A stretch of DNA of 64,000 nt from Nitrospira sp. CR1.1 (GTDB taxonomy: Bacteria > Nitrospirota > Nitrospiria > Nitrospirales > Nitrospiraceae), in the NCBI GenBank assembly GCA_014055465.1, contig WIAF01000007.1, forward strand, positions 62,001-126,000. The letters run 5' to 3'. Each line of letters begins with the position of its first letter. The stretch's first letter is position 1. Position numbers and translations under genes: made by a program. This document shows positions 23,474-61,528 of this stretch, one piece after another. The notes beneath the pieces were generated by a model. The model was not told where the DNA came from and ran no database searches. It saw nothing but the letters and a program-made list of their open reading frames with translations.

Positions 23474-23595
23474 GGATGGTGAAGAAGTCCGCCAGCGGTG
23501 CTCACCGACTCGCGCCCGTTCGCAGACGTGACGCTTATTCTTCCTCGCGTTGCGGACCTCGCTGCGGCCGCGCTGGACAGTCTGTTTGACCATCC
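23474..23595 (+). repeat. Palindromic intergenic element R1
   Basis: About 122 nt, beginning three bases after the subtilase stop codon. Ends pair as GGATGGT/ACCATCC. Internally it has the family layout: tgaagaagtccgccagc, then a variable middle, then ctgcggccgcgctgg. It belongs to the same family as elements at 29202, 43720, 43940 and 61337. It may act as a 3' structure of the subtilase mRNA or be a remnant of a mobile short repeat. Confidence 0.65.
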
Positions 23596-23691
23596 TGCGA
23601 CTGCGTTCGACGTCGTTTCCAGCTCCTCTCCATCAGTGCGTGTGGAGGTGGCGGAAGATCTTTTCAACAGCCGTTATCGAGGGAGGTCGTC

Positions 23692-25008
23692 ATGGAACAG
23701 TTATCAGGGTTTGCTTATTTTCCCGTGGAGTTTACCAAGGACGCCGCCGTCCATGATCAGGCCGATGTCGCAGCCTTGCAGGAGTATGTCCAACGCGAGG
23801 GCACAACCGATCTCATCGTCATCTCGCATGGCTGGAACAATAATATGGAGGAGGCCAAGGCGCTCTACGCCGAGTTTTTGCGTAACTTCCGCTCGTTACT
23901 CGACGCCGGTTCGCTCCCGACCCTCGCGAACCGGAAATGGGCGGTCCTCGGCGTGTTGTGGCCCTCGAAGAAGTTTGAGGAGAAGGAGCTGATTCCGAGC
24001 GGCGCCGCCGGGGCCGGTTCAGCGGTCGGCATGGCGGCCATGAAGGCGAAGCTGGACAGCCTCAAAGGCGTCTTTGATTCACCGCAGGCTGACCGAACGC
24101 TCGACGAGCTGCAACGACTCCTGCCGAAACTGGAGGATAGTACATCCGCCCAAAAGGAATTCGTGGACAAAGTCCGCTCGCTGGTTCACAAGCGCGCCCC
24201 GGATCAAGAAGACGGGTCGGAGGCCTTTTTCACGGTGCCGTCGGGCGAGCTGCTGGGCAAATTGCGCAAGCCCGTGTCGTTCACGGTAGCGCGGCCACCG
24301 GCGAATGCGGGTGGGGCGGCGGGAATCGGTTCCGGAGGCGCCGCTGGATTGGGGGAATTTTTCAGCGGGATCTGGTCCGGCGTGCGGAATGCGCTGAACT
24401 ATACCACCTACTATCAGATGAAGGAGCGGGCGGGATTGGTCGGAACGAACGGGGTGAATCCGATCCTCCGCGCCCTTCAAGTCGATCGGCCGAATATGAA
24501 GTTGCATCTGATCGGCCACAGTTTCGGAGGGCGCCTCGTGACCGCCGCCGTGGCCGGTTCCAGCGAGGCCACGCTCCTCCGCGTGAGGACGCTCTCCTTG
24601 TTGCAAGCGGCCTTCTCTCACTACGGATTCGCGGAGAAGTGGGACGGCGTGAACAACGGATTTTTTCATCGAGTGGTCAGCGCACGTGCGGTAGCAGGCC
24701 CGACGATTATCACCTGCACGGCAAACGACAAGGCCGTCGGTCTCGCCTATCCCATTGCGTCCCTGCTGGCTGGCCAGGTGGCCGCCGGGATCGGGGATAA
24801 GAATGACAAGTACGGCGGCATCGGCCGCAACGGGGCCCAGAAGACCCCTCGCACCGTGGATCTGACTCTGCTTGAGGCGACTGGCTCCTATCAGCTGACC
24901 AACGGCATGCTGCATAACCTTGCGACGGATCGACTCATCACCAGTCATGGAGACGTGGCCAACAAGTCAGTCGCCTATGCCGTGGCGTCGGCCATCGCGG
25001 TCACGTAA
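23692..25008 (+). CDS. Alpha/beta-hydrolase (esterase/lipase-like), cytoplasmic
   Basis: A 438-residue protein with a strong ribosome site (GGGAGG) and no signal peptide. Fold marks: VISHGWNNN in the oxyanion position (about residues 43-51) and the nucleophile elbow LIGHSFGGRL with Ser277. A long insertion (about 90-250) that includes a coiled helix and a Gly/Ala-rich loop separates them. A His for the triad may be in the ITSHGD segment near the C-terminus. It resembles DUF900-like or PGAP1-like esterases that act on lipids or acylated substrates. It follows the subtilase, separated by element R1. Substrate unknown. Confidence 0.82.
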   Translation: MEQLSGFAYFPVEFTKDAAVHDQADVAALQEYVQREGTTDLIVISHGWNNNMEEAKALYAEFLRNFRSLLDAGSLPTLANRKWAVLGVLWPSKKFEEKELIPSGAAGAGSAVGMAAMKAKLDSLKGVFDSPQADRTLDELQRLLPKLEDSTSAQKEFVDKVRSLVHKRAPDQEDGSEAFFTVPSGELLGKLRKPVSFTVARPPANAGGAAGIGSGGAAGLGEFFSGIWSGVRNALNYTTYYQMKERAGLVGTNGVNPILRALQVDRPNMKLHLIGHSFGGRLVTAAVAGSSEATLLRVRTLSLLQAAFSHYGFAEKWDGVNNGFFHRVVSARAVAGPTIITCTANDKAVGLAYPIASLLAGQVAAGIGDKNDKYGGIGRNGAQKTPRTVDLTLLEATGSYQLTNGMLHNLATDRLITSHGDVANKSVAYAVASAIAVT

Positions 25009-25151
25009 ACGATGATCGGCAGGTCGAACTGCGGAAGGTGACGAGGGGGGGCGAGAGACGACTCGTTGTTCAGGCGGAGGAGTTTTGGCGATGCGCCGGC
25101 GAGCGGGCTGGATTCTCGAGAAGGAACGGCGAGGCGTTGAGGGGCATCGTC

Positions 25152-26402
25152 CTACAGTTCTTCGCCGTATTTCAGAAAATGTTGTTCCTTGGCGCCGGCG
25201 ATCCAATTGTCGTGGCGGATGCGATCCGGGAACGTGTCGAGTTCCGAAGCCATATGTTCGACGTCTTGATCCTTCCATTCGGCGATCTGCCGGAAGGTAA
25301 ACATGCCCATGCGATTCAAGACGCGCTCCATCACCGGCCCGATCCCGTGAATCTGTTTGAGGTCGTCTTTCTGCGCGGCGCGTGATTTTCCGGCGGTGCG
25401 CGCGACGGTAGCGGAACTGTGCGACACAGGTTCGGCGGGGCTGGTCCCTTTGGCTTGCGCATGGTGCCGCTGGGCGACCCGGTATTCGACGAGCCGCTTG
25501 CGCAGCGCGGCGATTTCTTCCTCCCGTTCACTGACCTCCATCACCCGGCGTTCTTCAGCCTCGCGGAGGGCGATCTCCTTTTTTTCTACCTCACCCCGGA
25601 ACACCTCCAGTTCTTCCATCGTGGCGCGGAGGCGTTGAATATCCTGATCCCGCTGGTGCACCGTTTCGGTGAAGCGCGCGAGGTCCTCCTGATTCTGTGT
25701 CCGCAGGCGAGCGAGTTCCGATTCTTTCTCATCGAGCTGTGTCTGGCGCCGGGCGAGTTCCTGGTCCTTCCCTTGGATGACGGCGGAAGCCCGGGCGCGA
25801 TCCTGTTCGAGTTCCCGCTCCAACTGGCGGGTGTGCTCCCGGAATGGCTCCAGCTCTTCGGCGCGCGCCCGTAGGCGGGCGATCTCGGCGTCTTTCGGCG
25901 CCAGTTGCTCGACCCAGGTCTTGAGTGTGGCGATCTCCTGGTCCCGGCTGATCAACACGTCTTCCGCATTTTCCATCTGCGTCTGCATTTCGGTGAACCC
26001 CGCCGACTGCGCCACAAGCCTGGCTTCAGCTTCCTCGAGTTCCCGTCTGAGGGTATCCCGTTCACGTTCGGCCGCATGGAGGTGTACCCCTTTCTCCCGG
26101 ACTTCGGTCTGCAGCGTGGAGAGTTGGTCGACCTTCGTCGCGAGATCGGCGGTCAGGTCTTTGAGCGCCGCTTCGGAGGCGATCATCTTCCCTTCCAACA
26201 TCTGGACGGCCGAGGTGCGCACTTTTAATTCATGGTTCAGCGTGTCCAATTCATGTTCGCGGCCGCGGAGCCTGGTGGCAATTTCGGACAACTGCTGACG
26301 TTTCTCCGACGTGGCGAAACTGCGCAGCAGCCACCCCATCATGAGACCGATGGTCGTTGCCACCAGTAAGCAGCCGATCATTTGCAGAATTAAGGCTCCC
26401 AT
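25152..26402 (-). CDS. Membrane-anchored coiled-coil protein with C-terminal H3TH domain
   Basis: A 416-residue protein with three parts. An N-terminal membrane segment (about 4-27, QMIGCLLVATTIGLMMGWLL) is followed by basic residues, so the rest should be cytoplasmic. Residues ~35-325 form a very long heptad coiled coil (many Glu/Arg/Leu/Gln). The last ~65 residues are a helix-hairpin-helix domain: DLKQIHGIGPVMERVLNRMG, TFRQIAEWKDQDVEHMA, FPDRI...DNWIAGAK, matching the COG3743 flap-endonuclease-like H3TH type. Its GIGP turn is a typical DNA-backbone contact. It starts four bases after the stop of the BON-OmpA gene (26407), so the two are one operon. Confidence 0.85.
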   Translation of the reverse strand: MGALILQMIGCLLVATTIGLMMGWLLRSFATSEKRQQLSEIATRLRGREHELDTLNHELKVRTSAVQMLEGKMIASEAALKDLTADLATKVDQLSTLQTEVREKGVHLHAAERERDTLRRELEEAEARLVAQSAGFTEMQTQMENAEDVLISRDQEIATLKTWVEQLAPKDAEIARLRARAEELEPFREHTRQLERELEQDRARASAVIQGKDQELARRQTQLDEKESELARLRTQNQEDLARFTETVHQRDQDIQRLRATMEELEVFRGEVEKKEIALREAEERRVMEVSEREEEIAALRKRLVEYRVAQRHHAQAKGTSPAEPVSHSSATVARTAGKSRAAQKDDLKQIHGIGPVMERVLNRMGMFTFRQIAEWKDQDVEHMASELDTFPDRIRHDNWIAGAKEQHFLKYGEEL

Positions 26403-26406
26403 ACGA

Positions 26407-27300
26407 TCACCGTTCCTCTTTCACGCGAAATTCAATCCGCCGGTTCTTTTTCGACGCGGCGCGCGTCCGGTCCTGGCTCAACGGGCGGGATGCTCCATAT
26501 CCCACGGCGGTCAATCGATTGGTGACCCCATGATCAATCAGGTATTGCCGAACCGACTCCGCTCGTGTTCGGCTGAGTTGGAGGTTATACTCCGGGTCGC
26601 CATACGAATCGGTATGACCGCCGATTTCGATGACCGCTTCGGGCGAGCGCTTGAGGGATGGAATGACTTTATCGATAACGGCTCGTCCCTTGGAGGTGAG
26701 CCCGGCGCTGTTGCTTTCAAAGGCGATATGTTCTCCGCGCAGGATGTCATCCAACCCTGCCTGGATCTTGGCACGGGAGGCGTGCGCAGGCGGAGGGGCC
26801 GGCGCGGATGACGGGGAGACGGGGCCTGACGAGGCGACAGTGACGTGATCCTGGACGTGCATCGAGGCGCCGAGCAGCGAGGTCATCTCCTGCACGAGTT
26901 TGGTTTTGGTGTCGCCGTTGGCGGCCGCGCCCGTGACCGTCGCCGTCTGGCCGGAAACGGAGAGGGTGGCCTGGTGTTGATGGAGCGCCGCGACCTGTGT
27001 CAGCAGCGCCGGGACGGCGCTTTCCCACGCAGAGGCTCCGCCGTCTTCAAGGATGTCGAGATTGTCCGTGACGCGCAACTTGAGGTGTTTGGCGAGCTCC
27101 TGCGCGCGGGCGACGGCCGCGAGTTTTGCCTCTTCGCTTCCCATGGCGCCCGAGAGCGTGAGGTGCCCGTTTTCAATATGAGCGCTGAACGATGAGTGGC
27201 CGGTCGCCGACGACGTGACCGGCAGGTGTCGAGGGATACAGATGAACGCCAACAAGGTGAGTGCAAATAGCCCTACGCCAAAAATAATTCCGCGCGACAT
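26407..27300 (-). CDS. BON-OmpA envelope protein, OmpATb/ArfA-like
   Basis: A 297-residue protein: N-terminal membrane anchor (about 5-22), two BON-type segments (about 33-90, HSSFSAHIENGHLTLSGAMG, and 95-150, ATLSVSGQTATVTGAA), a Pro/Ala linker, and a C-terminal OmpA peptidoglycan-binding domain (about 175-297) with IEIGGHTDSYGDPEYNLQLS, RAESVRQYLIDHGV and KKNRRIEFRV. This layout matches mycobacterial OmpATb/ArfA. It is probably anchored in the inner membrane and binds peptidoglycan. It is co-transcribed with the coiled-coil H3TH protein. Confidence 0.87.
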   Translation of the reverse strand: MSRGIIFGVGLFALTLLAFICIPRHLPVTSSATGHSSFSAHIENGHLTLSGAMGSEEAKLAAVARAQELAKHLKLRVTDNLDILEDGGASAWESAVPALLTQVAALHQHQATLSVSGQTATVTGAAANGDTKTKLVQEMTSLLGASMHVQDHVTVASSGPVSPSSAPAPPPAHASRAKIQAGLDDILRGEHIAFESNSAGLTSKGRAVIDKVIPSLKRSPEAVIEIGGHTDSYGDPEYNLQLSRTRAESVRQYLIDHGVTNRLTAVGYGASRPLSQDRTRAASKKNRRIEFRVKEER

Positions 27301-27527
27301 GCGCCAGCCCTTATCGCCCCGGGGACGGGGCTTCGCTGCGGCGTCCTACGCCACAGGAATGGTGTTGGTTACAGACTTCGAGTGATACTTGATTTCCTTG
27401 ATTGCGCAACGCCAGGGTGCCCAATCGCCAATCTTCGAAGGGTATCACATCGCCAGGGCGCATGCTAGCCCGGATTCTCCAGGACGAGCCGCGTGTGAAT
27501 CACTGACCGGAGCGCGAGGAGGCTGCG

Positions 27528-27632
27528 ATGAATCGGGTGTGGATCTCGATCAACTTGCAGTGGCGTCGAGGCATCTGCTATTGTCACGGCGTTTTTTCGT
27601 CCAATGTGATCCCACCCACACGATATCCATAG
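27528..27632 (+). CDS. Possible 34-residue leader peptide before purH
   Basis: The frame starts at an ATG with GAGGAGG five bases upstream, a better ribosome site than many genes here, and ends in TAG fifteen bases before the purH start. The product begins MNRVWISINLQWRRGICYCH. No family match. It may be a leader peptide or a coupling ORF, or a chance frame; the strong ribosome site is the only positive evidence. Confidence 0.35.
   Translation: MNRVWISINLQWRRGICYCHGVFSSNVIPPTRYP
27555..27584 (+). promoter_or_regulatory. Weak promoter candidate for purH
   Basis: TTGCAG (27555-27560), 18-base spacer, TATTGT (27579-27584). It would start transcription close to position 27590, inside the small leader frame, giving purH a leader of about 55 bases. 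If this is the promoter, the leader peptide frame is not translated from it. Confidence 0.3.
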
Positions 27633-27647
27633 TTGAAGGAGTTCATC

Positions 27648-29201
27648 ATGGCCAGCATTGCGCGGGCACTGATCAGTGTTTCTGACAAGACCGGAGTGGT
27701 CGAGATGGCCAAAGGGCTAGCAGCCCTCGGCGCGGAAATTCTATCCACGGGCGGAACAGCCAAAGCCTTGCGTGACGCGGGCGTGGCCGTGACGGATGTC
27801 GCCGCATACACGGGGTCTCCGGAGATTCTCGATGGCCGCGTGAAAACCTTGCATCCGAAAATTCACGGCGGCTTATTGGGGAGACGGGGCGTTCCCGGCC
27901 ACGTCAAGCAGATGCAGCAACACGGCATCGGCAACATCGATGTGGTTGTGGTGAATCTCTATCCGTTCGAAGCAACGATCGCCAAACCCGATTGTCCGTT
28001 CGAAGAGGCCATCGAAAATATCGATATCGGCGGCCCGTCGATGCTGCGCTCAGCCGCGAAGAACCATGAAGACGTGCTCGTCGTCGTCGATCCGACCGAT
28101 TATGCCCGCGTGTTGGAGGCCGTCAAGGCCGGTTCTGTCACGCCCGCCTTGCGCCGTGAACTGGCCATGAAAGTGTTTCAGCACACCGCGCGCTATGACA
28201 GCCTGATCGCCGGCTATCTCGAAAAGCAGGTGCAGGGGAGCGAGGTGAAGTTTCCCGCCGTGCTCTCGCTGCAGTTCGAGCGGGTGGAGACGCTTCGCTA
28301 TGGGGAGAATCCGCACCAACAGGGCGCGTTCTATCGGGAAATGCACGCGAAGGAGCCGGCGGTGTCGCGCGGAAAAATTCTGCACGGCAAGGCCATGTCC
28401 TATAACAATTTCCTCGATTCGAACTCAGCGCTCGAGCTCGTGAAGGAATTCGATCAGACGGCGGTGGCCATCATCAAACACAACAATCCCTGCGGCTGTG
28501 CGTTGGGTGCAACGCCGGTCGAGGCCTACGTCAAGGCGCGCGCGACGGATCCTGTGTCGGCGTTCGGCGGGGTGATTGCGTTTAATCGTCCCGTGGATCT
28601 GGCGGCGGCGAAGGAGATTACCTCGACGTTTGTCGAAGTGGTCATCGCGCCGGGTTTTGCGGACGATGCGCTGGCGGAACTGAAGCGGAAGAAAGACATT
28701 CGCCTTCTGGATGTCGGCCCGCTTAGCAAGGCGACGGCGGAAGGGTATGACCTCAAGAAATTGGTCGGCGGATTAATCGTGCAGGATCGTGATCTGGGCG
28801 TCATCAAGGACATCAAAGCCTTGGCGGTGCCGACCTCGCGCAAACCGACCGAGCAGGAATATGCGGCCTGCGCATTTGCCTGGGTAGTCTGCAAACATGT
28901 GAAGTCGAATGCCATCATTTACGGCCGTCCCGGTGAAATCGTCGGCATCGGCGCCGGGCAAATGAGTCGGGTGGATTCGGTGAAGCTCGCGGCCATGAAA
29001 GCCCAGTCGTCCATGAAGGGCTGCATCATGGCCTCGGATGCATTTTTTCCGTTCCGGGACGGCATCGATGCGGCGGCGGAAGCCGGTATTACCTGTGTGA
29101 TTCAGCCCGGCGGGTCGATCCGTGATGCGGAAGTGACCAAGGCAGTGGACGAGCATGGGATGGCGATGATTCTCACGGGTATGCGCCACTTCCGCCATTG
29201 A
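27648..29201 (+). CDS. purH: Bifunctional AICAR transformylase/IMP cyclohydrolase
   Basis: A 517-residue enzyme (usual 510-530) for the last two steps of IMP synthesis. The MGS-like cyclohydrolase domain comes first ([50 protein letters not shown]), then the transformylase domain ([64 protein letters not shown]). The ATG at 27648 has GAAGGAG seven bases before it. purD follows 230 bases downstream, after repeat element R2. Confidence 0.97.
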
Positions 29202-29323
29202 GGGACGTTGAAACGGGCTTCCGACTACGTTCTCGATTCGAAAAAATCCTCAACGTAGCCCTGAGGCTACGCCTGCGGTTTTTTCTCGTTTGCGGCCTTG
29301 TTGGCAGGCCCGTTTGAACGCCC
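29202..29323 (+). repeat. Palindromic intergenic element R2
   Basis: About 122 nt starting at the base after the purH stop. Terminal arms CGTTgAAACGGGC and GCCCGTTTgAACG pair over 12 positions with one central mismatch. Inside it holds a perfect hairpin CGTAGCC-CTGA-GGCTACG (29254-29271), then CCTGCGG and a T6 run (29279-29284), which makes it a plausible intrinsic terminator for purH. The middle sequence matches element R5 near carA/sppA. Confidence 0.75.
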
Positions 29324-29432
29324 TCAGGAACGTCGATGGTTCAGGCTGAGTGGGTCCAGTTCGAAGCTTCCCGGCGGGTTCCTCGAGTCTATTCGAACCG
29401 TGTGCGTACTTCATTCAAGTAACGGTTGATCT

Positions 29433-30710
29433 GTGAAGATTCTTGTCGTCGGCAGTGGTGGACGTGAACATGCGCTGGTCTGGAAGATTGCCCAGAGTCC
29501 GCGGAAGCCGCAGATCTTTTGCGCGCCGGGAAATGCGGGAATCGAAGGCCTGGCGACCTGCGTCCCGATCAAGGCGGACGACATTGCCGGGATCAAGGCC
29601 TTTGCGCTGAAGGAGCAGATCGATCTCACCGTGGTCGGTCCGGAAGCGCCGCTTGCACTCGGGATCGCCGATGAATTCAGGAAGTCGCGGCTGAAAATCT
29701 TTGGTCCAACGAAGGCCGCGGCGCGCTTGGAATCCAGCAAAAGTTTCTCGAAAGACATCATGGCGGCCAGCGGGATTCCCACGGCTGTGTCGAGCAGCTT
29801 CGAGCGGATGGACCAGGCGCTGGCCTATCTGGATGCTCAGCCTGTGCCTATTGTGGTGAAGGCGGACGGCCTTGCGCAGGGCAAAGGGGTGGTCGTGGCG
29901 ACGACCCGCGAGGAAGCCAGGCAGGCGGTGCGTGACGCCATGGAAAAGTCTATCTTCGGCCAGGCCGGCCAACGAGTGTTGATCGAAGAGTTTCTCGACG
30001 GTGAAGAACTGACCATCATGGCGTTCACCGATGGGAAAACTGTCGTGCCGATGATCCCCGCACAGGATCACAAACGTATCGGGGACGGTGATGCCGGACC
30101 CAATACCGGCGGCATGGGCGCCTATGCTCCGGCTCCCATTGCGACGGCGGCGATTCGCGATCAGGTCATGCGAGAGGTGCTGCAACCGACGGTTGATGCG
30201 ATGGCCCGTCTCGGGTGCCCGTTTCAAGGGGTACTGTACGCCGGCCTGATGATCGTAAACGGGACGCCCTACGTGTTGGAATTCAATGCGCGGATGGGGG
30301 ATCCGGAAACGGAAGTGGTGCTGCCATTGCTGAAGACCGACCTGGTGGACGTGATGGAGGCCGTCGTTGAACATCGCCTCGATCAGCTTCCGGTTGAATG
30401 GCGGCAGGACACTGCCGTCTGTGTGGTCATGACCTCGCCCGGATATCCCGGGTCTTATCAAACCGGGTTTCCGATTCAGGGGTTGCCTGCGCCGTCCGGC
30501 ACGTCAGCCATTGCAGTATTTCACGCCGGCACCAAGCGGGAGGCCGGGCAGGTCGTGACGGCGGGCGGTCGCGTGTTGGCCGTAGCGGCCTGGGCCCCGT
30601 CCTTGCTTCAAGCGCGGGCGCAGGTCTATCAGGCTGTGCCGACGATCACCTTCCAGGGGCGCCACTATCGCACCGACATCGCCCACCGAGCCCTTCCGCG
30701 CCAGTCTTAA
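29433..30710 (+). CDS. purD: Phosphoribosylamine-glycine ligase
   Basis: A 425-residue ATP-grasp enzyme that joins phosphoribosylamine and glycine in purine synthesis. Motifs: KILVVGSGGREHALVWK at the N-terminus, KADGLAQGKGVVVA (ATP-grasp), NTGGMGAYAP and EFNARMGDPETEVVLPLL. The start is GTG 29433, fixed by the family N-terminus; its ribosome site is poor. It is followed at 22 bases by a Sua5-type gene. Confidence 0.97.
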   Translation: MKILVVGSGGREHALVWKIAQSPRKPQIFCAPGNAGIEGLATCVPIKADDIAGIKAFALKEQIDLTVVGPEAPLALGIADEFRKSRLKIFGPTKAAARLESSKSFSKDIMAASGIPTAVSSSFERMDQALAYLDAQPVPIVVKADGLAQGKGVVVATTREEARQAVRDAMEKSIFGQAGQRVLIEEFLDGEELTIMAFTDGKTVVPMIPAQDHKRIGDGDAGPNTGGMGAYAPAPIATAAIRDQVMREVLQPTVDAMARLGCPFQGVLYAGLMIVNGTPYVLEFNARMGDPETEVVLPLLKTDLVDVMEAVVEHRLDQLPVEWRQDTAVCVVMTSPGYPGSYQTGFPIQGLPAPSGTSAIAVFHAGTKREAGQVVTAGGRVLAVAAWAPSLLQARAQVYQAVPTITFQGRHYRTDIAHRALPRQS

Positions 30711-30732
30711 CCCGATTGCGACAGGCCGTGAC

Positions 30733-31380
30733 ATGGCTCTGGTTCTTCCCTTCATCGACAAAACCTTCGACACCATCCTGCCGGAAGTGCGCCGTGTGTT
30801 GGCCGCGCAGGGGCTCCTCGCCCTGCCGACCGAAACCTATTATGGCTTAGCCGTTCGACCCACCAACGAAAGGGCGTTGCGCCGACTGATTGACGTCAAA
30901 GGCCGGCCCGACGACAAGCCCATTCTTGTGCTCATCGGCGGGCGCGATCAATTGTCTTCATTGGTGGAATCGGTTCCTCCGGCCGCGGCCGCGCTGATGG
31001 ATCGGTTTTGGCCGGGGCCCTTGACCATCGTGTTGCCCGCCGCAACCGGCTTGTCCCCGTTGCTGACGGCGGGAACCGGCACGATTGGGGTTCGATGGTC
31101 GCCGCTGGCGATCCTGCAACGCTTGTTGATGCAGACTGGTCCTCTGACCGGGACCAGTGCCAACCGGTCATCCGAACCCGCTCTCGCCGATGCAGACTCG
31201 GTGCAGCAGACGCTCGGGCCGCTCCTTGATCTGATTCTTGATGGCGGGCGCACGCCGGGCGGCACCGCGTCGACGATCGTCGATGCGCGCGACCAGCCGC
31301 GCGTGCTGCGAGCGGGGGTGCTGTCGACGGACCGGATCCGCGCAGCCCTGGAGCCACTGGGGTACACACTTTCATCATGA
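30733..31380 (+). CDS. L-threonylcarbamoyladenylate synthase (YrdC/Sua5 family)
   Basis: A 215-residue YrdC-domain enzyme that makes threonylcarbamoyl-AMP for the t6A37 modification of tRNAs. Key motifs: LLALPTETYYGLAV (substrate and ATP binding), RPDDKPILVLIGG, FWPGPLTIVL, GVRWSP and GPLTGTSANRSSEP. It is the short (YrdC/TsaC) type without the C-terminal Sua5 domain. It is probably co-transcribed with purD. Confidence 0.93.
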   Translation: MALVLPFIDKTFDTILPEVRRVLAAQGLLALPTETYYGLAVRPTNERALRRLIDVKGRPDDKPILVLIGGRDQLSSLVESVPPAAAALMDRFWPGPLTIVLPAATGLSPLLTAGTGTIGVRWSPLAILQRLLMQTGPLTGTSANRSSEPALADADSVQQTLGPLLDLILDGGRTPGGTASTIVDARDQPRVLRAGVLSTDRIRAALEPLGYTLSS

Positions 31381-31393
31381 TTTGGCAATTCGT

Positions 31394-31414
31394 TGTGGGT
31401 ATAATTCACCCACA
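31394..31414 (+). promoter_or_regulatory. Perfect 7-bp inverted repeat over a TATAAT
   Basis: TGTGGGT-ATAATTC-ACCCACA has perfect arms. The last T of the left arm and the spacer form TATAAT (31400-31405). The spacing suits a dimeric regulator that would cover the -10 of the lipoprotein gene at 31429; a -35 at 17 bases is weak, so the promoter itself is uncertain. Confidence 0.4.
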
Positions 31415-31428
31415 CGGGAGGACCACTT

Positions 31429-31869: not shown

Positions 31870-31973
31870 GCCTGCGGCAGGCAGTGGTCGATACCGGCAG
31901 GCTCGTTTCGCATGCCTCCGTCCGAAGACTCCGGCGGTTGTGGGTCTCCTGTCTGATGGAACGGGGTTCCCGG

Positions 31974-32384: not shown

Positions 32385-32512
32385 GGGTCTTCCTCCTCTG
32401 GTCGTACAGCGTTGCTCGGTGTTCTATGGCTCGATGCGGTCTCTACGGAACCTTTCCCTGATAACCTCATGTGATGCACAGTCAAGTGGCTGCGGTGCCG
32501 AGATTTGCGTGA

Positions 32513-43709: not shown

Positions 43710-43719
43710 AGTCTCCTAG

Positions 43720-43842
43720 CAGAATGCGGAAAAAGCCCGCCAGCTGCGTTCTCGCATCGCTCAGCGGCTCACCGTACCGCACGGGTACGATTCGCCGTTT
43801 CGCTCGCTGCGGCCTTGCTGGACGGCCATTTTACGCATCCTG
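43720..43842 (+). repeat. Palindromic intergenic element R3
   Basis: About 123 nt; end arms CAGaATGCGgAAAA and TTTTaCGCATcCTG match at 12 of 14 positions. The body has the family blocks gcccgccagctgcgttctcgc and cgctgcggccttgctggac. By those blocks it lies in plus orientation, opposite to the neighbouring kdsA and pyrG, and sits between them with element R4. Confidence 0.75.
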
Positions 43843-43939
43843 CGCGTTAGGTTGCTACCAACCCGCTACCTAGGCTGTTCTCGCCGTAGGGTAGTGAATC
43901 AAGCGTTTCTCAAGCCTGTTGAGTGTCCGCTGTTCCCGA

Positions 43940-44055
43940 GATGCTCAAACTGATCTTTCAGCAAGGCCGCAGACGAGACAGAACCGCAGTCGTAGCGGAG
44001 CTACGTCGAAGATTGTGTCGGGTCGAGAACGCCGCAGAAAGGCAGTTTCAGCATC
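43940..44055 (-). repeat. Palindromic intergenic element R4
   Basis: About 116 nt on the minus strand, starting a few bases after the pyrG stop. Arms GATGCTgAAACTG and CAGTTTgAGCATC pair with a single mismatch. The middle keeps the gttctcg...cgacgtagctccgctacg...tctgcggccttgctg layout of R2. It is in the same orientation as pyrG. Confidence 0.75.
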
Positions 44056-50086: not shown

Positions 50087-50104
50087 GTTCCCCAAAATCG
50101 GCTC

Positions 50105-50133: not shown

Positions 50134-50229
50134 AGAAATCGCCTCCCGGTATAATCCGCGCGCGGCGCCGCGAGTCATGCATCAGACGCGCTCCTGCCGC
50201 GCAGTTGTTGTATCACGCCCCGTCATCCC

Positions 50230-51612: not shown

Positions 51613-51787
51613 AACTGCTTGTCCTTACCGCTGATTTCCGTTCATGGGCCGCGTCCTGCACGTGTTCACGCTGGAACAGTGCGCCGACGTTTTTTGTGCA
51701 GGGCCAAGATCGCGCCGGAAGCTGAAATTCGAGTGCTAGACTTGATTTCATGCTGTGTTACGCGATAGCTCCGGCGAGCCGCCTGTC

Positions 51788-53014: not shown

Positions 53015-53050
53015 GAGAGGCAGGGCTTCCTCGTCAGCCTCTTGTTCGTC

Positions 53051-54199
53051 CTAGGCCCCACCGGCTGAGGTGTCGCTGGCAGCGAGGTGGTTGAGAGATG
53101 CTGGGCTGAGGACGATGCGTTCTCCCGTCGTGACTCCCTCCCGAATCGTCACCTGATTGTCCGTCACGCTGTCGATGGTCACGGGGCGTTCCTCAAATCG
53201 GCCTGGTTCGAGTTCCACTACAATCCATTGCCTCCCGGATCGTTCCAACACCGCCTGTTTGGGAATCACAATCTTCGGGCGCATGGTGTGGCCTGCCACC
53301 GTGAGTCGGGCAAACATTTCCGGCTTCAACCGGCGATCCTGATTTGAGACGGTGGCGCGAATTTTGATCGTCCTGGTCGCCGGATCAACGACATCGCCGA
53401 TGACGGCAATCTTTGCCGGAAATTCAACGGCCGGATAGGCTTCGACCGTCATGGCCGCGACCGCGCCGACCTGGATGCCAGAGAGGTCGTGCTCATACAC
53501 ATCCGCCACCACCTGGAGCCGATCCAGATTGGCTACGGTGAACAGCGGCTGGTCCGAAGCGGTCCCGACGATTTGCCCCGGTGTCACATTGCGTTCCACG
53601 ACGGTGCCCGTCAATGGGCTCCGGAGCTCGAAACGCGACGTAATCTGCTGTTGCGCCAGCGGCTTGCTGAGTTCGGCGGACGGCACCCGCAGGGAGAGGA
53701 GTCGTTCCTTCGCCTGCTTGAATTCGGCTCGCTCGCGATTCAGGTCGTTTTCCGCATGTTCGAGATCCTTCAGAGCCATGGCTTGAGCGTCGTACAGATC
53801 CTTGGTCAGTTCATAGTTCCGTTCAGCCAGCCCCAACTCCGAAATTTCCTCGACATAGGCTGCGTAGGCGCGAGCGATATCAGCGGCGTCGATGACCATC
53901 AGGATGTCCCCGGCCTTGACCGCCTGGCCGAGTTTGACCCGCACGTCGAGCACCGGACCTTGAAGGGGTGAGGAAATTTTCGAGAATCCGTCCTCCGCAT
54001 ACGTCACTCTGGCCGACAGGGTCAAGCCTGGCTGCGACGTCGATGCATCGATGCGCATCGTCTGGATATCCGGTTGGCGGCCGGCGACGACTGAGGGCGG
54101 AACCTGTTTGGCGGCCGGCGCCGGGGGATCCGGCCTTGTGCAGGCCACCAGGGTCAGGCCGAGGAGAATGACAGACACATGTCGCAGAGATCGTTTCAT
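53051..54199 (-). CDS. RND/HlyD-type periplasmic adaptor lipoprotein
   Basis: A 382-residue membrane-fusion protein. The lipobox LTLVAC fixes an N-terminal lipid anchor (about Cys20). Family order: a biotinyl-lipoyl half (VRVKLGQAVKAGDILMVIDAADI), a long helical hairpin (about 115-165), the other lipoyl half (LRSPLTGTVVERNVTPGQIV), a beta-barrel (LQVVADVYEHDLSGI) and a membrane-proximal domain. It resembles CzcB/CusB-type metal efflux adaptors. No RND pump or TolC gene is nearby within the window; the convergent beta-barrel at 51788 may be unrelated. Confidence 0.9.
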   Translation of the reverse strand: MKRSLRHVSVILLGLTLVACTRPDPPAPAAKQVPPSVVAGRQPDIQTMRIDASTSQPGLTLSARVTYAEDGFSKISSPLQGPVLDVRVKLGQAVKAGDILMVIDAADIARAYAAYVEEISELGLAERNYELTKDLYDAQAMALKDLEHAENDLNRERAEFKQAKERLLSLRVPSAELSKPLAQQQITSRFELRSPLTGTVVERNVTPGQIVGTASDQPLFTVANLDRLQVVADVYEHDLSGIQVGAVAAMTVEAYPAVEFPAKIAVIGDVVDPATRTIKIRATVSNQDRRLKPEMFARLTVAGHTMRPKIVIPKQAVLERSGRQWIVVELEPGRFEERPVTIDSVTDNQVTIREGVTTGERIVLSPASLNHLAASDTSAGGA

Positions 54200-54550
54200 G
54201 AAACCCGGTTTCCTCTTCTGTCATATCGGTCGATCTGTCGTTCGACCACAGTCCTGGCTCGTGGTGCCGGGTCCGCTCGATGCTGTCCTGCCGGCATAAA
54301 TCCCTCATGACAGCTCATACCATTTTGCAGGGACGGTAAGGGCGGGACGCAGGACCATCGGGAATGGGGCGATTGGCATATGCTGGACCAAATATGCACG
54401 GAAAATCAGCCTATTCCGTGGTGGCCACGTCATGCATACCGGCCTGCGAGCGCACAATCTTATTAAAACACCGGCCACTTTCGACTGTCAATTCCAGGAG
54501 ATCGGAATGGGTCGCAGAAGGAGCCTGACTGGGATTGAAGATGCCGTGGG
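54200..54550. other. Leader region of the adaptor gene with two inverted repeats
   Basis: About 350 bases upstream of the adaptor. Two perfect dyads lie next to each other: GCATAT (54376-54381) with ATATGC (54392-54397), and CACGGAA (54397-54403) with TTCCGTG (54414-54420). Both spacers are 10 bases, so centres are about 22 bases apart, as for two regulator dimers. No other gene is visible. Confidence 0.4.
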
Positions 54551-55351
54551 TCAGCTGAGCTCGATTCGCGCGCCTCTGGCCACATGTAACCGGTCGGCCG
54601 CACGACCTTCCTTGAGGAACACCTCAACGTATCCGTTGCTGTTGATTAGAGCGTGGGGGGCATCGGTTGAACCTTCCCCGTAGGTATGCACCAGACGGTC
54701 GATCGTCAGGCCGCCGATGCGAATGTATGGGTCGGAGCGTTTGGTGACACCGCGGACTTCCCGGATGTGGTAGGCGGTGAGATTTGAAATCAGATTGCCG
54801 AACCGATCGATATAGACGATCTCTCCCGCCATGGCATGTTTGTCCCAGGCCGGTTCGGAAATCGGCAGACGTTCGTAATTGGGGACGAGTCGGCCGAACG
54901 AACCGATCGGTTGGCCTTTGGTCAACCAGGCGGCGGCGGGGGCGAAGAGATCGCGCCCGTCAAATGTGGCGCCTTCCGAGTCCAGCCGGTACTGCCGGTT
55001 TTCGAGGTGTCGTACTTCGACGCCCGTTTCTTCCTGATAGATGTGGGTGAACAGGCCGTTGTCCGGTCCGACAAACACGTAGCGCGAGGACGATACCAGC
55101 AGCGGCCGCCTGGCGGTGCCCACGCCGGGATCCACGACCGCGACATGGATGGTGCCATCCGGAAAATAGCGATAGCAGGATTTGAGCAGATACGCGGCAT
55201 CCGCCACATCGTGCGGCGTGACGTGATGAGAGAGATCCACGATCTGCGCCTGAGGATTGATGTTGAGGATCACGCCCTTCACACTGGCCACGAAATAATC
55301 GCGGTCGCCGAAATCCGTCAACAGTGTGATCAGGGGAATGGTTACCGGCAT
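54551..55351 (-). CDS. SAM hydroxide adenosyltransferase (DUF62 family)
   Basis: A 266-residue SAM hydrolase-type enzyme of the SAM_adeno_trans family (related to fluorinase/chlorinase). LITLLTDFGDRDYFVASVKGVIL, IVDLSHHVTPHDVADAAYLL, VAVVDPGVGTARRPLL and FVGPDNGLFTH are typical. The DUF62 reaction is SAM plus hydroxide to adenosine and methionine. It also contains YIDRFGNLISNL, common to the family's second domain. It lies ~80 bases after greA. Confidence 0.93.
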   Translation of the reverse strand: MPVTIPLITLLTDFGDRDYFVASVKGVILNINPQAQIVDLSHHVTPHDVADAAYLLKSCYRYFPDGTIHVAVVDPGVGTARRPLLVSSSRYVFVGPDNGLFTHIYQEETGVEVRHLENRQYRLDSEGATFDGRDLFAPAAAWLTKGQPIGSFGRLVPNYERLPISEPAWDKHAMAGEIVYIDRFGNLISNLTAYHIREVRGVTKRSDPYIRIGGLTIDRLVHTYGEGSTDAPHALINSNGYVEVFLKEGRAADRLHVARGARIELS

Positions 55352-55430
55352 GACATCAACCCGGCCCCGGCATGCGAACGAAATCTGGCGCGGAAGGAGC
55401 GCGAAAAAGGTGCGGGCGACACCATGACGT

Positions 55431-55907
55431 CTACAATTCCTCGAAACGGATTTCCATCACTTCGTATTCCACCACCTTGACGGGAGTCGTCACCTCTACC
55501 AGGTCCCCGACCCGCTTACCGATGAGTGCCCGGCCAACCGGGGATTGAACGGAAATGCGGGAAAACTTGAGGTCCGCTTCATCCTGCCCGACCAGGGTAT
55601 ATTGCTTCTTGGCCTGGGCTTCCTGTTCGATCAACACGACGGTGGCGCCGAACACCACGGTGTCGCTGGTGCGGCCGGCAATGTCGATGATCCGGCAGTC
55701 GGCCAGTTTCCCCTTCAACTCCGCCAGGCGCGCCTCGATAAACCCCTGCCGCTCTTTCGCGGCATCGTATTCGGCATTTTCGCTCAGATCGCCATGTGCG
55801 CGCGCTTCTGCAATCGCCTCGATGACGCGCGGACGTTCCACTTTATGGAGTCGGTCCAATTCGGCTTTCAGCGCTTCGTATCCCTTTTTCGTGATCGGTG
55901 TCGGCAT
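55431..55907 (-). CDS. greA: Transcription elongation factor GreA
   Basis: A 158-residue factor that lets RNA polymerase cleave backtracked RNA. The N-terminal coiled-coil (PTPITKKGYEALKAELDRLHKVERP, then EAIAEARAHGDLSENAEYDAAKERQGFIEARL, with the acidic tip DLSENAEYD) is typical, and the C-terminal FKBP-like domain ends GDLVEVTTPVKVVEYEV. Length is normal. Confidence 0.96.
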   Translation of the reverse strand: MPTPITKKGYEALKAELDRLHKVERPRVIEAIAEARAHGDLSENAEYDAAKERQGFIEARLAELKGKLADCRIIDIAGRTSDTVVFGATVVLIEQEAQAKKQYTLVGQDEADLKFSRISVQSPVGRALIGKRVGDLVEVTTPVKVVEYEVMEIRFEEL

Positions 55908-56050
55908 ATCTTCCCCCCGATGACCATTGAAACCGGCTTCCGGTCGCGCCTTTCGGTCGTCACACCGGTTACCTCGCGTTCAGGAAAGTCTTCGATATGT
56001 ATGTCCTTCCTGGAACCTGTTGTCAATTGTCCCTCTGTCAGGACCTTCGC

Positions 56051-59000
56051 TCAATTCACCCGGTGATACTCCTGCAATGCTCGAATGGCAAGCCCCTTTT
56101 TCAGCAGCGCTTCGATCCCCATGACGGCGGCCAGGGCTCCCCGCATCGTGGTGTAGTACGGCACGCCTTTGTGCAAGGCCTCGCGTCGAATGGATAAGGA
56201 GTCGGTCTGCGCGGATGCCGTCCGCACGGTATTGACGACCAGGGCTACATCGCCATTCTTGATATGGTCCACAATGTGCGGCCGCCCTTCCTGCACCTTG
56301 TTGACTACATCCACCTGCATCCCCTGCTCGGTCAGATACGCAGCCGTTCCGGAGGTGGCGGTGATCCGGAATCCGAGCGCGACCAACCGTTGGGCGACGT
56401 CGCAGGCCCCGGCGCGGTCCTCGCTTTTCACGCTGAGAAATGCGGTGCCGGAGGTGGGCAGGATGGCGCCGGCGCCGGCTTGGGATTTGACGAATGCCCA
56501 GCCGAAATCGCTGTCGATGCCCATCACTTCCCCGGTGGACTTCATTTCCGGGCCGAGCAGGACGTCGACGCCGGCGAATTTCGTAAATGGGAACACGGCT
56601 TCCTTGACGGAAAGATGCGTCGGTGTGGGGGCCGTCATGAAATTCAATTGCTTCAACGATTTGCCGACCATGACCTTCATGGCCAGTTTGGCCAGCGGGA
56701 CGCCGATGGCCTTGCTGACGAACGGCACTGTGCGCGATCCGCGCGGATTGACCTCCAGCACATAGATGGTCTGATCCTTCACGGCGAACTGCGCGTTCAT
56801 CAGTCCGATCACGCCGAGTTCCAATGCCAGCGCGGTCATCTGACGGCGGATTTCTTCGATCGTCGCGGAGTCGAGCGTATAGGGCGGAAGGGAACAGGCC
56901 GAGTCCCCCGAGTGCACACCGGCTTCCTCGATGTGTTCCATGATGCCCGCCACGACCACAGTCGTGCCGTCGGAAATCGCGTCGGCATCGATTTCGATGG
57001 CATCGCGCAAATACTTATCGATCAGCACGGGGTGTTTCTCCGACGCCTTGACCGCCGTATTCATATAGTGGAGCAGTCCCGCCTCGTCGTAGACGATCTG
57101 CATCGACCGTCCACCAAGGACATACGACGGCCGCACCATCACGGGATAGGTAATGTCGGCGGCGATCTTCAAGGCTTCATCGACGGAATGGGCCATCCCG
57201 CTTTCCGCCTGACGCAAACCGAGTGTATCGAGGAGGTCGCGGAACCGCGCGCGGTCTTCCGCGCGGTCGATGGCATCCGGACTTGTGCCCAGAATAGTGA
57301 CACCGGCGCGTGACAGGGAGAGCGCGAGTTTCAGGGGCGTCTGCCCGCCGAATTGGAGCACCACGCCCATCGGTTGTTCGCGCGCCACGATATTCAACAC
57401 ATCTTCCTCCGTCAGCGGCTCGAAGTAGAGGCGATCGGAGGTGTCATAGTCCGTGCTGACCGTTTCCGGATTGCAATTGACCATGATAGTTTCGATCTGT
57501 TCCTCGCGCAACGCCATGGCGGCGTGCACGCAGCAATAGTCGAACTCAATCCCCTGCCCGATCCGGTTTGGTCCGCCGCCCAGAATCACGACCTTTTTCC
57601 TGTCGGTCGGGCGCGCCTCGCACTCGCGCTCATAGGTGGAATAGAGGTATGGCGTATGGGCTTCAAACTCGGCGGCGCAGGTATCGACGCGCTTGTAGGT
57701 TACGCTGCGAGGGGTGCTGCCTTGTCCCAGGGCCAAGCGCCAACGTCGAACCGTACCTTGCGGAACTCCCAGCAATTGAGCCAGGCGTTCGTCGGCGAAG
57801 CCCAATTCTTTCGCTTCGACGAGGAGGTCCGGCCGGAGGCCAGGGTCGCCGAGCCTGCCGCGTTCTGCCACGAGGCGCGGCTCGAACTCGACGATTTCAC
57901 GAATCTGATCCAGGAACCAGGGATCGATTTTGGTCAGGGCGAAGAGTTCCTGATTCGTCATGCCGAGACGCATGCCGTCGGCCAGGCGCCACAGCCGGTC
58001 TGGGAGCGGTGTGCGCACGGCCTTGCGAACCTGTTCCGCCGCCTCTTCGCGATCGAGCGTCGGCGGCACGCCGAGATCGAGGCCCATCTTCGAACTGAAG
58101 CCGAACTGATCGACTTCCATGGAACGGATCGCCTTCTGCAGCGATTCTTTAAACGTACGCCCGATCGCCATGACTTCCCCGACCGATTTCATCTGGGTGG
58201 TCAGCGTGGGATCGGCGCCGGGGAATTTCTGGAAGGCAAAGCGGGGAATTTTCACGACGACGTAATCGATGGTCGGTTCGAAGGACGCTTTCGTCACGCC
58301 GGTGATGTCGTTCGTGATTTCATCCAGGGTATACCCGACGGCCAGCTTGGCGGCAATTTTTGCGATGGGGAATCCCGTCGCTTTGGACGCCAGGGCTGAG
58401 CTTCGGGAGACGCGTGGATTCATTTCGATCACGACCATGTCTCCGTTCACCGGGTTCATGCCGAACTGAATATTGGCTCCGCCTGTATCGACGCCGATTT
58501 CGCGAATAATGCGCACGGCCGCATCGCGCAGCATCTGATATTCCTTATCGGTCAGCGTGAGTGCCGGCGCCACGGTGATGCTGTCGCCGGTGTGGACGCC
58601 CATCGGATCGAGATTCTCGATAGGGCAGATGATGACCACGTTGTCTTTCAGGTCGCGCATCACTTCGAGCTCGAACTCTTTCCAGCCGATGACGGACTGT
58701 TCGACGAGCACCTGGCGGACCGGGCTCATGGCCAGGCCCCATTCCACCTGTGTCCGGAATTCTTCAATGTTGTAGGCGATGTTGCCGCCGGTTCCGCCCA
58801 TGGTGAATGATGGCCGTACAATCGCCGGGAACTGCACGCGCCGGACCACTTCTTCGGCTTCTTGGAGCGACGTGGCCACGCCGCTATCCGGTACGCGCAG
58901 GCCGATTTTCCACATCGCCTGCCGGAACGCGTCGCGATCCTCGGCCTTATGGATGGCTTCGATCGATGCCCCAATTAGCTGTACTCCGTATTTTTCCAGG

Positions 59001-59320
59001 ACGCCCCGTTTGGCCAGCCCGATGGCGGTATTCAAGGCCGTCTGCCCGCCCATGGTCGGCAACAGCGCGTCCGGGCGTTCGCTTTCGATGACCTTTTCCA
59101 CCACGTCGAGCGTGATCGGTTCAATGTAGGTCCGGTCGGCAAAATCCGGATCGGTCATGATTGTGGCCGGATTGCTGTTGATCAGGATGACGCGGTACCC
59201 CTCCTCCTTGAGCGCTTTGCACGCCTGGGTTCCCGAATAGTCGAATTCGCAGGCCTGCCCGATCACGATGGGGCCGGAGCCGATCAAGAGAATGGAGCGG
59301 ATGTCTGTCCGTCGTGGCAC
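56051..59320 (-). CDS. carB: Carbamoyl-phosphate synthase large subunit
   Basis: A 1089-residue enzyme (usual about 1070). Two ATP-grasp halves, each with a [19 protein letters not shown]-like start (second [20 protein letters not shown]) and [10 protein letters not shown] / [10 protein letters not shown], an oligomerisation domain between them ([11 protein letters not shown]), and a C-terminal MGS allosteric domain. It makes carbamoyl phosphate for pyrimidine and arginine synthesis. It follows the M48 gene at 22 bases. Confidence 0.98.
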
Positions 59321-59342
59321 AATTGACCTCGAATAAAAGAAG

Positions 59343-60323
59343 TTAGCCGGTTGGCAGAGGCGCCTCTGGCATGGGCCCCACCGGCGGCCGGTAGGGTTGG
59401 ATCGGACCGGACGGGATTGCCGGGGCCTTTCCTGCGGGATGATAGTGTTTCATGGCGTCGGGGATCCAGGCCTCGATCTGGTTGATGCGGGTGACATCGG
59501 ACGGATGCGTCGAGAGGAACTCCGGAATCGCCTGCTGCGAGCGGAAACAGAGCTTGTTGATCATGGCGCGCGGACAGCCGCTCATCCGTTCCCAGAACGC
59601 CACCGCTTCGCGCGGATCGTACCCCGCCTCGGCCATCAGGCGCAGGCCGACAAAATCCGCTTCCGATTCCTGGCGGCGGTCGAAGGGCAGGGAGACGCCG
59701 ACGCCATAGACGGTCATCGCGGCCATGGCCGCATCCGGCCGTCCCACGGCGGCGCCGGCGCCCAAGGCGGCCAGTTGCCCAATTTGTTCGAGAATGCCGC
59801 GACTCATCCGTTCCGCCCCATGGCGCTGGAGCGCATGCGCCACTTCATGACCCATGACCGTCGCCAGTCCGTCTTCGTTCTTGGTTACCTTCAAAATTCC
59901 GGTGAATACCGCGACCTTGCCTCCTGGCAGCGCGAACGCGTTGATCGTGCGATCGTCCTGAATCACGGCGAATTCCCATTGGTATTCCGGTTTGTTCGCC
60001 GCCTTGGCGATGCGGTTGCCGACACGGTGCACCATCTCGTTGAGCTCCGGGTTGTCGCTCAAGGGCGCTTGCCTGAGCACCTCCCGAAAGGCCGAGAGGC
60101 CCATGGCCATTTCTTTTTCTTCCGACAGATAAATGAATTGGTCGCGCGCCGTGCCGGGCGCTCGTTGACAGCCGCCGAGCGATTGCAGCAAGCCCATCGT
60201 TGCGCCAATCCCCATGACGCTGGCCAACAGCGAAGCCGCGCGCGCCCCCAGCGCGAGCGCCGAGCGTCGCCCCATCGGCGTCTTGAGCAGCGTTTCGATT
60301 GAATGTTGGTCTGACGGATACAT
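59343..60323 (-). CDS. M48-family metalloprotease, membrane-anchored
   Basis: A 326-residue zinc protease. A hydrophobic segment ([17 protein letters not shown], about 20-40) precedes a possible lipobox (SLGGC). The zinc motif is HEVAHAL (two His, catalytic Glu), with the third ligand in ESEADFVG. It resembles loiP/bepA-type M48B peptidases of the envelope. A Pro-rich tail ends the protein. The start is taken as ATG 60323; a TTG 18 bases earlier is less likely. It sits between sppA and carB in an otherwise pyrimidine operon. Confidence 0.9.
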
Positions 60324-60373
60324 CACGTCTATTCCATTCAATCAGCACCGGGCGACGGAAGCAACTCACCGCC

Positions 60374-61528
60374 TCAAGGCATCCACAGATACATGAATTG
60401 CGGCGATCCGCCTCGCACGACCGACAGCAGATCCACGTTCGCCAGACTGGCAAGGCTGGGCGCCGGGGCAACCAGCCGCGAATACACATTGTTCTGATAT
60501 TCGCCGGGCCGGCGATAGGTCACGACCTTCGCCTCCAGCAATCCGGCTTTTTTCTTGGCCAGCTCAATCGCATCGTCGAGGTATCCGATCTCGTCGACCA
60601 GCCCCGAGGATTTGGCCTGGTCGCCGGAATAAATCCGGCCGTCGGCCAGCTTCTTGATGGTTTCGCCGGTCAACCCCGGGCGTCCTTCCTGCACGACCTG
60701 GAGAAATCGCTGGTAAAAGCCATCGATCACGCCTTGGAAAATCGCGCGTTCTTCCGGCAGCATCGCCCGGAACGGGGAGCCCATATCTTTGCGTGGACCG
60801 GAGGTGACGGCATTGGTTTCCACGCCGACTTTCTCGAGCAATCCCCTGGCATTCACGGTCAGCATAATGACGCCGATGCTGCCGGTGACCGATGAGGGAT
60901 GGGCCAGCACGGCATCGGCGGCGGCCGCAATGTAGTAGCCGCCGGAGGCGCCCACATCCATGATGGACGCGACGATCGGAATTTTCCGGCTGGTCTTGAA
61001 GTGTTTGAGTTCGTGATAAATGATGTCGGATGCCGTGACGGTCCCTCCCGGGCTATTGATCCGGAGCACGATCGCTTTGACGCGTTCGTCTTTGGCGGCA
61101 CGTTCCAATTCTTCCTTCACGGTAGCCAGCATGCCTGGCGAGGAATAGAATCCGTCCTTGTTTTCTGAGCTGATCACGCCAGACACATCGATCATCAGGA
61201 CCTTGTCCTTGCCGGTGCCGCTGACTTTGTGTTCTTCCAGGGCGCCGGGACCCGGCGGGAGATTGATCGTGACGCAGGCGGCTTGCATCAGCGCCAGGGC
61301 CAGCACCACAAGACCGGTCGAGAGCTGCCAGACGCCGGGAGCCTGACCGACGTTGCGCTTCGTAGCGAGGCGAAGGAGCTGCGGCCAGGTGCGAGGCCGC
61401 AGGCCGGAAAAAACCGGAAGTGTATTCGCAGAATTACATTGAGGATTTTTGAGGGCCGAGAACGACGCAGATGGTCGCAGGTCATTCGCCGCAGCAGAGC
61501 GGTCAATGTCGGACAGGCTCCTACGCAT
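60374..61528 (-). CDS. sppA: Signal peptide peptidase SppA (S49), with repeat-derived N-terminus
   Basis: A 384-residue S49 peptidase. The ATG at 61528 overlaps the carA stop by eight bases. The first ~65 residues come from palindromic element R5 (61337-61521) and have no family counterpart; a hydrophobic segment and lipobox [10 protein letters not shown] follow at about 75-85. The peptidase domain has GSSGGYY-like DVGASGGYY with the nucleophile Ser, [10 protein letters not shown], and the catalytic Lys in the [11 protein letters not shown] region. SppA degrades signal peptides in the membrane. Whether the repeat-derived tail is translated, or a later start (GTG in the VVLALALM segment) is used, is unresolved. 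Confidence 0.88.
61337..61521 (-). repeat. Palindromic element R5 between carA and the sppA domain
   Basis: A 185-nt member of the repeat family. Its arms (61337-61354 and 61504-61521) are inverted copies at 16 of 18 positions: GGAGCCTGACCGACGTTG against GGAGCCTGTCCGACATTG when read 5' to 3'. The left end begins on the last base of the carA stop codon. The middle holds the blocks gtcgttctcg, tcaaaaatcctcaatgta and cggttttttccggcctgcggcc, shared with R2. Confidence 0.78.

What the first reader, a model, noticed from the sequence alone, without database searches (positions are those of the whole stretch)
23474..61521. A family of five long palindromic elements, four of which begin at a stop codon
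R1 (23474-23595), R2 (29202-29323), R3 (43720-43842), R4 (43940-44055) and R5 (61337-61521) share a layout: outer arms that pair, a gttctcg block, a middle hairpin, and a tgcggcc(ttgctgg) block. The outer arms differ in sequence between copies but still pair (R2 CGTTgAAACGGGC/GCCCGTTTgAACG, R4 GATGCTgAAACTG/CAGTTTgAGCATC, R5 18-nt arms), which is compensatory change and argues for a selected RNA or DNA structure. R1, R2, R4 and R5 start within five bases of the stop of subtilase, purH, pyrG and carA and lie in that gene's orientation. Such precise placement suggests either a 3'-end function or insertion targeted to stop codons.
Basis: seen in the sequence. Interest (0 to 1): 0.72.

Follow-up and report, generated by a model that had tools for sequence, protein, structure and literature searches.

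The report
Nitrospira hairpin repeats capping gene ends
A large family of about 120-letter hairpin repeats in Nitrospira bacteria most likely descends from small jumping DNA pieces that land at CTAG, a word that is rare inside genes but common at their stop codons; older copies mostly point the same way as the gene before them and two gene ends carry one in most related species examined, so some may now act on the messenger RNA of that gene.

Summary
The window lies in a Nitrospira genome. A covariance model finds 109 copies at E<0.0012 there, 77 in relative G009 and some in 24 of 24 congeners searched. The arms covary. A stop ending a frame of at least 100 codons lies 0-6 nt before the element, in its orientation, in 54/109, 42/77 and 63/109 copies.

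Origin: a young 199-nt subfamily has the terminal repeats and 4-nt target duplication (mostly CTAG) of IS1182-type insertion sequences of congeners; one empty site shows the target. CTAG is depleted eightfold, and 14 of 33 CTAGs outside genes are TAG stops. So these are MITEs, and "stop-codon targeting" is mostly CTAG targeting.

Not explained by insertion alone: older copies are sense-biased, young ones are not; purH and pyrG carry a hairpin in 25/27 and 24/26 genomes examined. That suggests a 3'-end role. Against selection on RNA pairing: no G-U excess, and little retention of stability beyond neutral simulation.

The parts
23468..23471 (+). CTAG target word that contains the TAG stop of the gene before R1
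   Evidence: sequence
23474..23595 (+). R1, family member with a different central part
   Evidence: model match 69.8 bits; 2 nt after the stop
29202..29323 (+). R2, hairpin directly after the purH stop TGA 29199-29201
   Evidence: 118.8 bits; hairpin at the same stop in 25 of 27 genomes with a purH locus
43716..43719 (+). CTAG at the left end of R3
   Evidence: sequence
43720..43918 (+). R3, probable 199-nt MITE (hairpin 43721-43840 plus tail); right flank TTGA is not a clean duplication
   Evidence: 100.8 bits; 87-88% identical to the young copies; absent from G009
43940..44055 (-). R4, hairpin 4 nt after the pyrG stop TAA 44060-44062(-)
   Evidence: 111.2 bits; hairpin at the same stop in 24 of 26 genomes examined
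61337..61521 (-). R5, family core 61369-61491 inside a longer palindrome that begins at the carA stop TAG 61521-61523(-)
   Evidence: 59.5 bits; also present at the matching place in G009 and G044

Best explanation
The elements are MITEs (non-autonomous transposons) of IS1182-type insertion sequences in Nitrospira. The outer arms of the hairpin are or include the terminal repeats; young copies are 199 nt with a 4-nt duplication, mostly CTAG. CTAG is rare inside genes and outside them is often a TAG stop preceded by C, so tolerated insertions land at stop codons and leave gene and stop intact with the hairpin about one base downstream (shown or directly read from sequence). Inferred: stops later mutate to TAA or TGA, and a CTAG left at a stop can be hit again, giving tandem arrays. 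Inferred with less confidence (about 0.5): copies in sense after a gene were kept preferentially because the hairpin near the 3' end of the coding region affects decay, processing or translation termination of that mRNA, as reported for ERIC and REP.
For: Young copies: 199 nt, ends CTAG|CAGGATGCGGAAAAA...TTTTTCCGCAGCCTG|CTAG, flanking words that vary together, CTAA/CTAA and CTAT/CTAT. Empty site in G009, CCTCTAAGTAG, where this genome has CCTCTAG|element|CTAGGTAG. A broken element at C1:861 starts CTAGCAGGCTGTTGACAAA and encodes a 204-aa fragment matching the IS1182 model NF033551 (E 8e-43; 147 bits, under the whole-protein cut-off of 270). Of 11 congener loci examined, 5 show both ends, four of them with CAGGCTGCGGAAAAACTC as in the young MITEs; their transposases are 44-46% identical to the C1:861 fragment. 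CTAG 55 v about 443 expected; 14 of 33 outside genes are stops. TAG is 34 of 54 stops at hairpins v 31 of 107 gene stops (p 4e-5). Sense bias: 54 v 2, 42 v 0, 63 v 6. Shared sites at purH 25/27 and pyrG 24/26, hairpins there more alike than 4-fold sites of the gene (0.955 v 0.621; 0.888 v 0.568).
Against: The IS1182 label of the best-matching elements rests on 44-46% identity to the fragment; they were not run against the family model. One young copy has unequal flanks (TTAA/TTAG), and R3 has CTAG/TTGA. Most older copies have no recognisable right end or duplication, so their origin is by family likeness. For the functional part: no G-U excess; pairs at least 80% identical keep no more stability than neutral simulation (1 of 23 in the best 5%); sharing with G009 is not higher at stops (29/42) than elsewhere (27/35); the pyrG hairpin does not clearly follow gene distance (rho 0.16, p 0.14), so horizontal spread is possible; antisense counts are low partly because tails hide such cases.
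Confidence: 0.75

Rival explanations
1. Purely parasitic MITEs: placement follows from the CTAG target and from loss of insertions inside genes; no host function.
For: CTAG at stops; no copy of 109 inside a called gene; no G-U excess; stability decays about as in neutral simulation in the more alike pairs; sharing not higher at stops; G004 has only 2 copies under the stricter filters.
Against: CTAG is its own reverse complement, so both orientations are expected, and young copies show both (2 v 3; 4 v 5), but the other 93 own copies give 53 v 3, or 56 v 14 if every antisense stop at tail distance is counted (p 4e-7; p 0.03 against the young ones). Hairpins at purH and pyrG are far more alike than 4-fold sites.
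Confidence: 0.4
2. A structured RNA element selected for its pairing in the mRNA, with mobility secondary.
For: Covarying arms and conserved unpaired stretches in 61 sequences; sense bias; conserved sites.
Against: G-T v A-C 32 v 47 among relatives and 59 v 68 in orthologous pairs; no Rfam family; terminal repeats and target duplication show a transposon.
Confidence: 0.2
3. REP/REPIN elements moved by a RAYT (Y1) transposase.
For: High copy number, palindromic, extragenic; one Y1 gene in this genome at C6:115426.
Against: G005, G009 and G011 have 72, 73 and 65 copies and no Y1_Tnp match; a true target duplication; no copy within about 8 kb of the Y1 gene by the hit list.
Confidence: 0.03
4. 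Intrinsic transcription terminators.
For: Hairpins at gene 3' ends in sense.
Against: No terminator-like site in the sense strand of R1, R2, R4 or R5 (the two hits at R2 are on the other strand inside the element); no T-run after the hairpins listed. Some copies end 3-50 nt before the next co-directional start.
Confidence: 0.08

Closest known systems
IS1182-family insertion sequences and their MITEs
   Same: Terminal repeats CAGGCTG..., CTAG or YTAR 4-nt duplication, transposase fragment matching NF033551.
   Different: The MITE core, a long hairpin with conserved unpaired stretches, is not seen in the ends of the insertion sequences examined; sense placement after stops across a genus.
ERIC/IRU of enterobacteria
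   Same: About 120-130 nt imperfect palindrome, MITE, extragenic and transcribed; orientation is reported as crucial for its effect on the upstream transcript (passages of PMC2229807).
   Different: ERIC has TA at its termini (same passages); other sequence and hosts; an effect is not tested here.
REP/BIME
   Same: Palindromes near stops; those within 15 nt are reported to stall ribosomes (passages of PMC12306157; the primary paper was not seen).
   Different: REPs are 20-40 bp (abstract of PMC3733652 in a listing) and here no Y1 transposase is needed.
Correia/NEMIS of Neisseria
   Same: MITE of about 107 or 155 bp with a proposed RNase III effect on neighbouring transcripts (passages of PMC2229807).
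   Different: TA termini; no stop-codon adjacency in the passages seen.

Membership tests
MITE of an IS1182-type element | terminal repeats shared with an insertion sequence | tested here: met
   young copies against congener elements; older copies only by likeness of the hairpin
MITE of an IS1182-type element | target duplication and empty site | tested here: met
   4-nt duplication in most young copies (TTAA/TTAG is an exception) and one empty site; not met cleanly for R3
MITE of an IS1182-type element | helper belongs to the IS1182 family | tested here: inconclusive
   C1:861 fragment matches NF033551, below the whole-protein cut-off; the elements with identical ends are 44-46% identical to it
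MITE of an IS1182-type element | movement by the helper transposase | not testable with these tools
   needs an assay; this genome holds only broken IS1182 matches
REP/REPIN with RAYT | a Y1 (RAYT) transposase in genomes with the repeats | tested here: not met
   G005, G009, G011: 65-73 copies, no PF01797 match
ERIC | TA termini and ERIC sequence | tested here: inconclusive
   duplication is CTAG-type; no sequence comparison with ERIC was run
Rfam RNA family | match at the gathering score | tested here: not met
   none in the window; none on a hairpin in five own loci at E up to 0.1
intrinsic terminator | hairpin followed by a T-run, in sense | tested here: not met
   R1, R2, R4, R5:

The most novel reading that the evidence does not exclude
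A transposon-derived hairpin has become a genus-wide 3'-end element: in the two genomes counted over forty genes end in one, nearly always in sense; the site is held while the occupant is exchanged for another family member; and the hairpin controls mRNA decay or translation termination of the gene before it.
Probability: 0.3. Interest if true: 0.75.

Novelty: new variant of a known kind. Interest (0 to 1): 0.5.

Why it matters
It offers a simple route by which a transposon comes to cap genes: a target word that survives mainly as a stop codon. It also supplies many natural hairpins at the same place and in the same orientation, in a genus central to nitrification, with a natural near-loss (G004, 2 copies), so that the old question whether bacterial MITEs serve their host could be tested directly. 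I found no description of the family in print in the searches made (listings only); most subscription papers are outside that library.

Tried and rejected
REP/RAYT: rejected. IS630: the one DDE_3 transposase found has other ends. Known RNA family: none. Intrinsic terminator: none in sense at R1, R2, R4, R5. The first consensus structure (19 pairs) was incomplete; the fuller fold is. Insertion directed at stop codons as such: not needed, since CTAG explains most of it; in nine tandem arrays the copy next to the stop scores higher than the second in six (scores), suggestive only. Better retention of at-stop copies: not found. Selection on RNA pairing: not supported by G-U counts or simulation.
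Full report
WHAT WAS CHECKED. The five elements exist as described and fold into long hairpins. Blastn with R2 found about 20 copies in the 4.44-Mb genome. A covariance model of 22 copies gave 120 matches at E up to 1 and 109 at E<0.0012 (150 of 1882 first-look candidates were scored, so this is a lower bound). In the window it finds the same five and no other at E<0.001. In a wider search 40 of 41 genomes, own included, have matches; 24 of 24 congeners do, from 2 (G004) to the scoring limit of 88 (stricter filters). The organism is taken to be a Nitrospira on that ground.

STRUCTURE. In 61 sequences under 88% identity the consensus is one long hairpin: outer helices that vary and covary (A-T 28 and C-G 22 of 61 at one pair), conserved stretches that do not pair or pair weakly (around CGTTCTCG and CTGCGGCCT; CTCAA and CCTC) and an apical CGTAC/GTACG helix. 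In four helices of 31 pairs, 1692 of 1875 scored cells are Watson-Crick, 32 G-T, 47 A-C, 104 other. Selection on one RNA strand would favour G-U over A-C; that is not seen here, nor in 22 orthologous pairs with G009 (59 v 68, p 0.48; 16 paired Watson-Crick changes). Covariation among relatives is also what matching transposon ends would give.

PLACEMENT. With frames open for at least 100 codons, a stop ends 0-6 nt before the element in sense in 54 of 109 own copies (36 at exactly 1 nt) and at the other end in antisense in 2 of 109. G009: 42 and 0 of 77 (one of 78 hits was the reverse strand of another and was dropped). GTDB loci: 63 and 6 of 109 (taken from the 150 best of 167 matches, without the syntenic stretches, with 11 short-flanked copies left out and duplicates counted once). 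Shifted points give 1-4 sense and 0-1 antisense. No own copy of 109 lies inside a called gene (simple gene caller of my own).

ORIGIN. About twenty own copies are near-identical 199-nt elements, CTAG|CAGGATGCGGAAAAA...hairpin...tail...TTTTTCCGCAGCCTG|CTAG; the flanking words vary together in some (CTAA/CTAA, CTAT/CTAT), though one reads TTAA/TTAG. G009 has the empty target CCTCTAAGTAG where this genome has CCTCTAG|element|CTAGGTAG. A broken element at C1:861 begins CTAGCAGGCTGTTGACAAA and matches the IS1182 model over a 204-aa fragment. Among 11 congener loci found with that fragment, 5 show both ends by my pattern; four of these (G001 twice, G020, G023; the last with a stop inside its frame) have CAGGCTGCGGAAAAACTC, as in the right end of the young MITEs, and one (G022) CAGGCTGTTGACAAA. 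This genome holds only broken IS1182 matches. R3 reads as a 199-nt element with CTAG on the left and TTGA on the right.

WHY STOP CODONS. In 124 kb of this genome CTAG occurs 55 times against about 443 expected: 22 inside genes, 14 at stops, 19 elsewhere (words next to elements were not removed). TAG is 34 of 54 stops at hairpins against 31 of 107 gene stops. A CTAG-seeking element that is not tolerated inside genes will thus often sit right after a stop. TAA and TGA at other copies can be later mutations of TAG; that step is inferred.

WHAT INSERTION ALONE DOES NOT EXPLAIN. CTAG is its own reverse complement, so neither orientation should be favoured, and young copies favour none (2 sense, 3 antisense among 16; 4 and 5 by another rule). 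The other 93, which include a few young-looking copies that failed the end criterion, give 53 and 3. Antisense copies with a tail put the hairpin 76-115 nt from the stop; counting every such case the ratio is 56:14 (p 4e-7), and p 0.03 against the young copies.

CONSERVED SITES. At the purH stop 25 of 27 genomes with a locus have a hairpin 0-3 nt after it, of at least four sequence types, read by eye; two of the 29 genomes had no purH match. At pyrG it is 24 of 26 examined, one truncated (G012); G004 and G021 keep short remnants of the outer arms; G006, cut near the contig start, was not entered. In 16 syntenic stretches of about 18 kb the matches lie only at these two gene ends, apart from one extra copy beside each of two of them; G004 has none. 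Within a type the hairpin is more alike than 4-fold sites of the gene: pyrG type 1 0.955 v 0.621 (12 of 14 genomes; G009 failed the motif, G002 was not entered), purH type 1 0.888 v 0.568 (13 genomes). Hairpin distance follows gene distance at purH (rho 0.38, p 0.003), not clearly at pyrG (rho 0.16, p 0.14), where horizontal spread is possible. Of 77 G009 copies 56 have a partner at the matching place here, 29 of 42 at stops and 27 of 35 elsewhere. For 28 pairs at stops the hairpin beats 4-fold sites in 21 (means 0.777 and 0.663) and the 3' flanks of 25 genes without a hairpin (mean 0.669; p 0.006), with the bias that both hairpins had to be detected. Of 50 pairs simulated, those at least 80% identical keep no more stability than neutral change (1 of 23 in the best 5%), while 9 of 20 at 65-80% and 0 of 7 below do; the middle group fits exchange of one family member for another, or compensation.

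HOW IT PROBABLY WORKS. Shown: transposon ends and target, stop adjacency, sense bias, shared sites. Inferred: a sense hairpin at 0-4 nt meets the terminating ribosome and the enzymes of mRNA decay. Precedents are ERIC, where orientation is called crucial for the effect on the upstream transcript (passages of PMC2229807), and REP within 15 nt of a stop, reported to stall ribosomes (passages of PMC12306157). The purely parasitic reading remains open at about 0.4.

Noticed in passing
window C7:62001-186000 stretch (window plus L325-L327): CTAG occurs 55 times against about 443 expected from base composition.
   Followed up: partly
C4:118554, C4:141198, C13:12137, C5:222894, C4:82891, C13:54254 and R1 at window 23474-23595: A second central module (GACAC-GCCGGCTCACCG...GTGGACCTCGCTGCGG-like) stands in or beside the usual core.
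   Followed up: no
C7:160337, C1:609891, C2:114835, C2:493901, C1:672310: Another insert in the apical part with the motif GGGTGGGCGGGTAAGA or close to it.
   Followed up: no
G021 and G004 at pyrG (L285, L294): Only short remnants of the outer arms remain after the stop; in G021 this looks like deletion between direct repeats in the arms.
   Followed up: no
C1:861-4216 (L322, L415, L416): An IS1182 copy split by two large frames that look like an IS21-type pair (recognised by eye only).
   Followed up: no
L277, L278, L282, L286: Genomes with pyrG hairpin type 2 also have another start of the next gene (kdsA-like), suggesting recombination of the region.
   Followed up: no
L127 8886-9177: Rfam match to the 5_ureB sRNA family (93.5 bits, gathering 40) between hairpin copies.
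   Followed up: no
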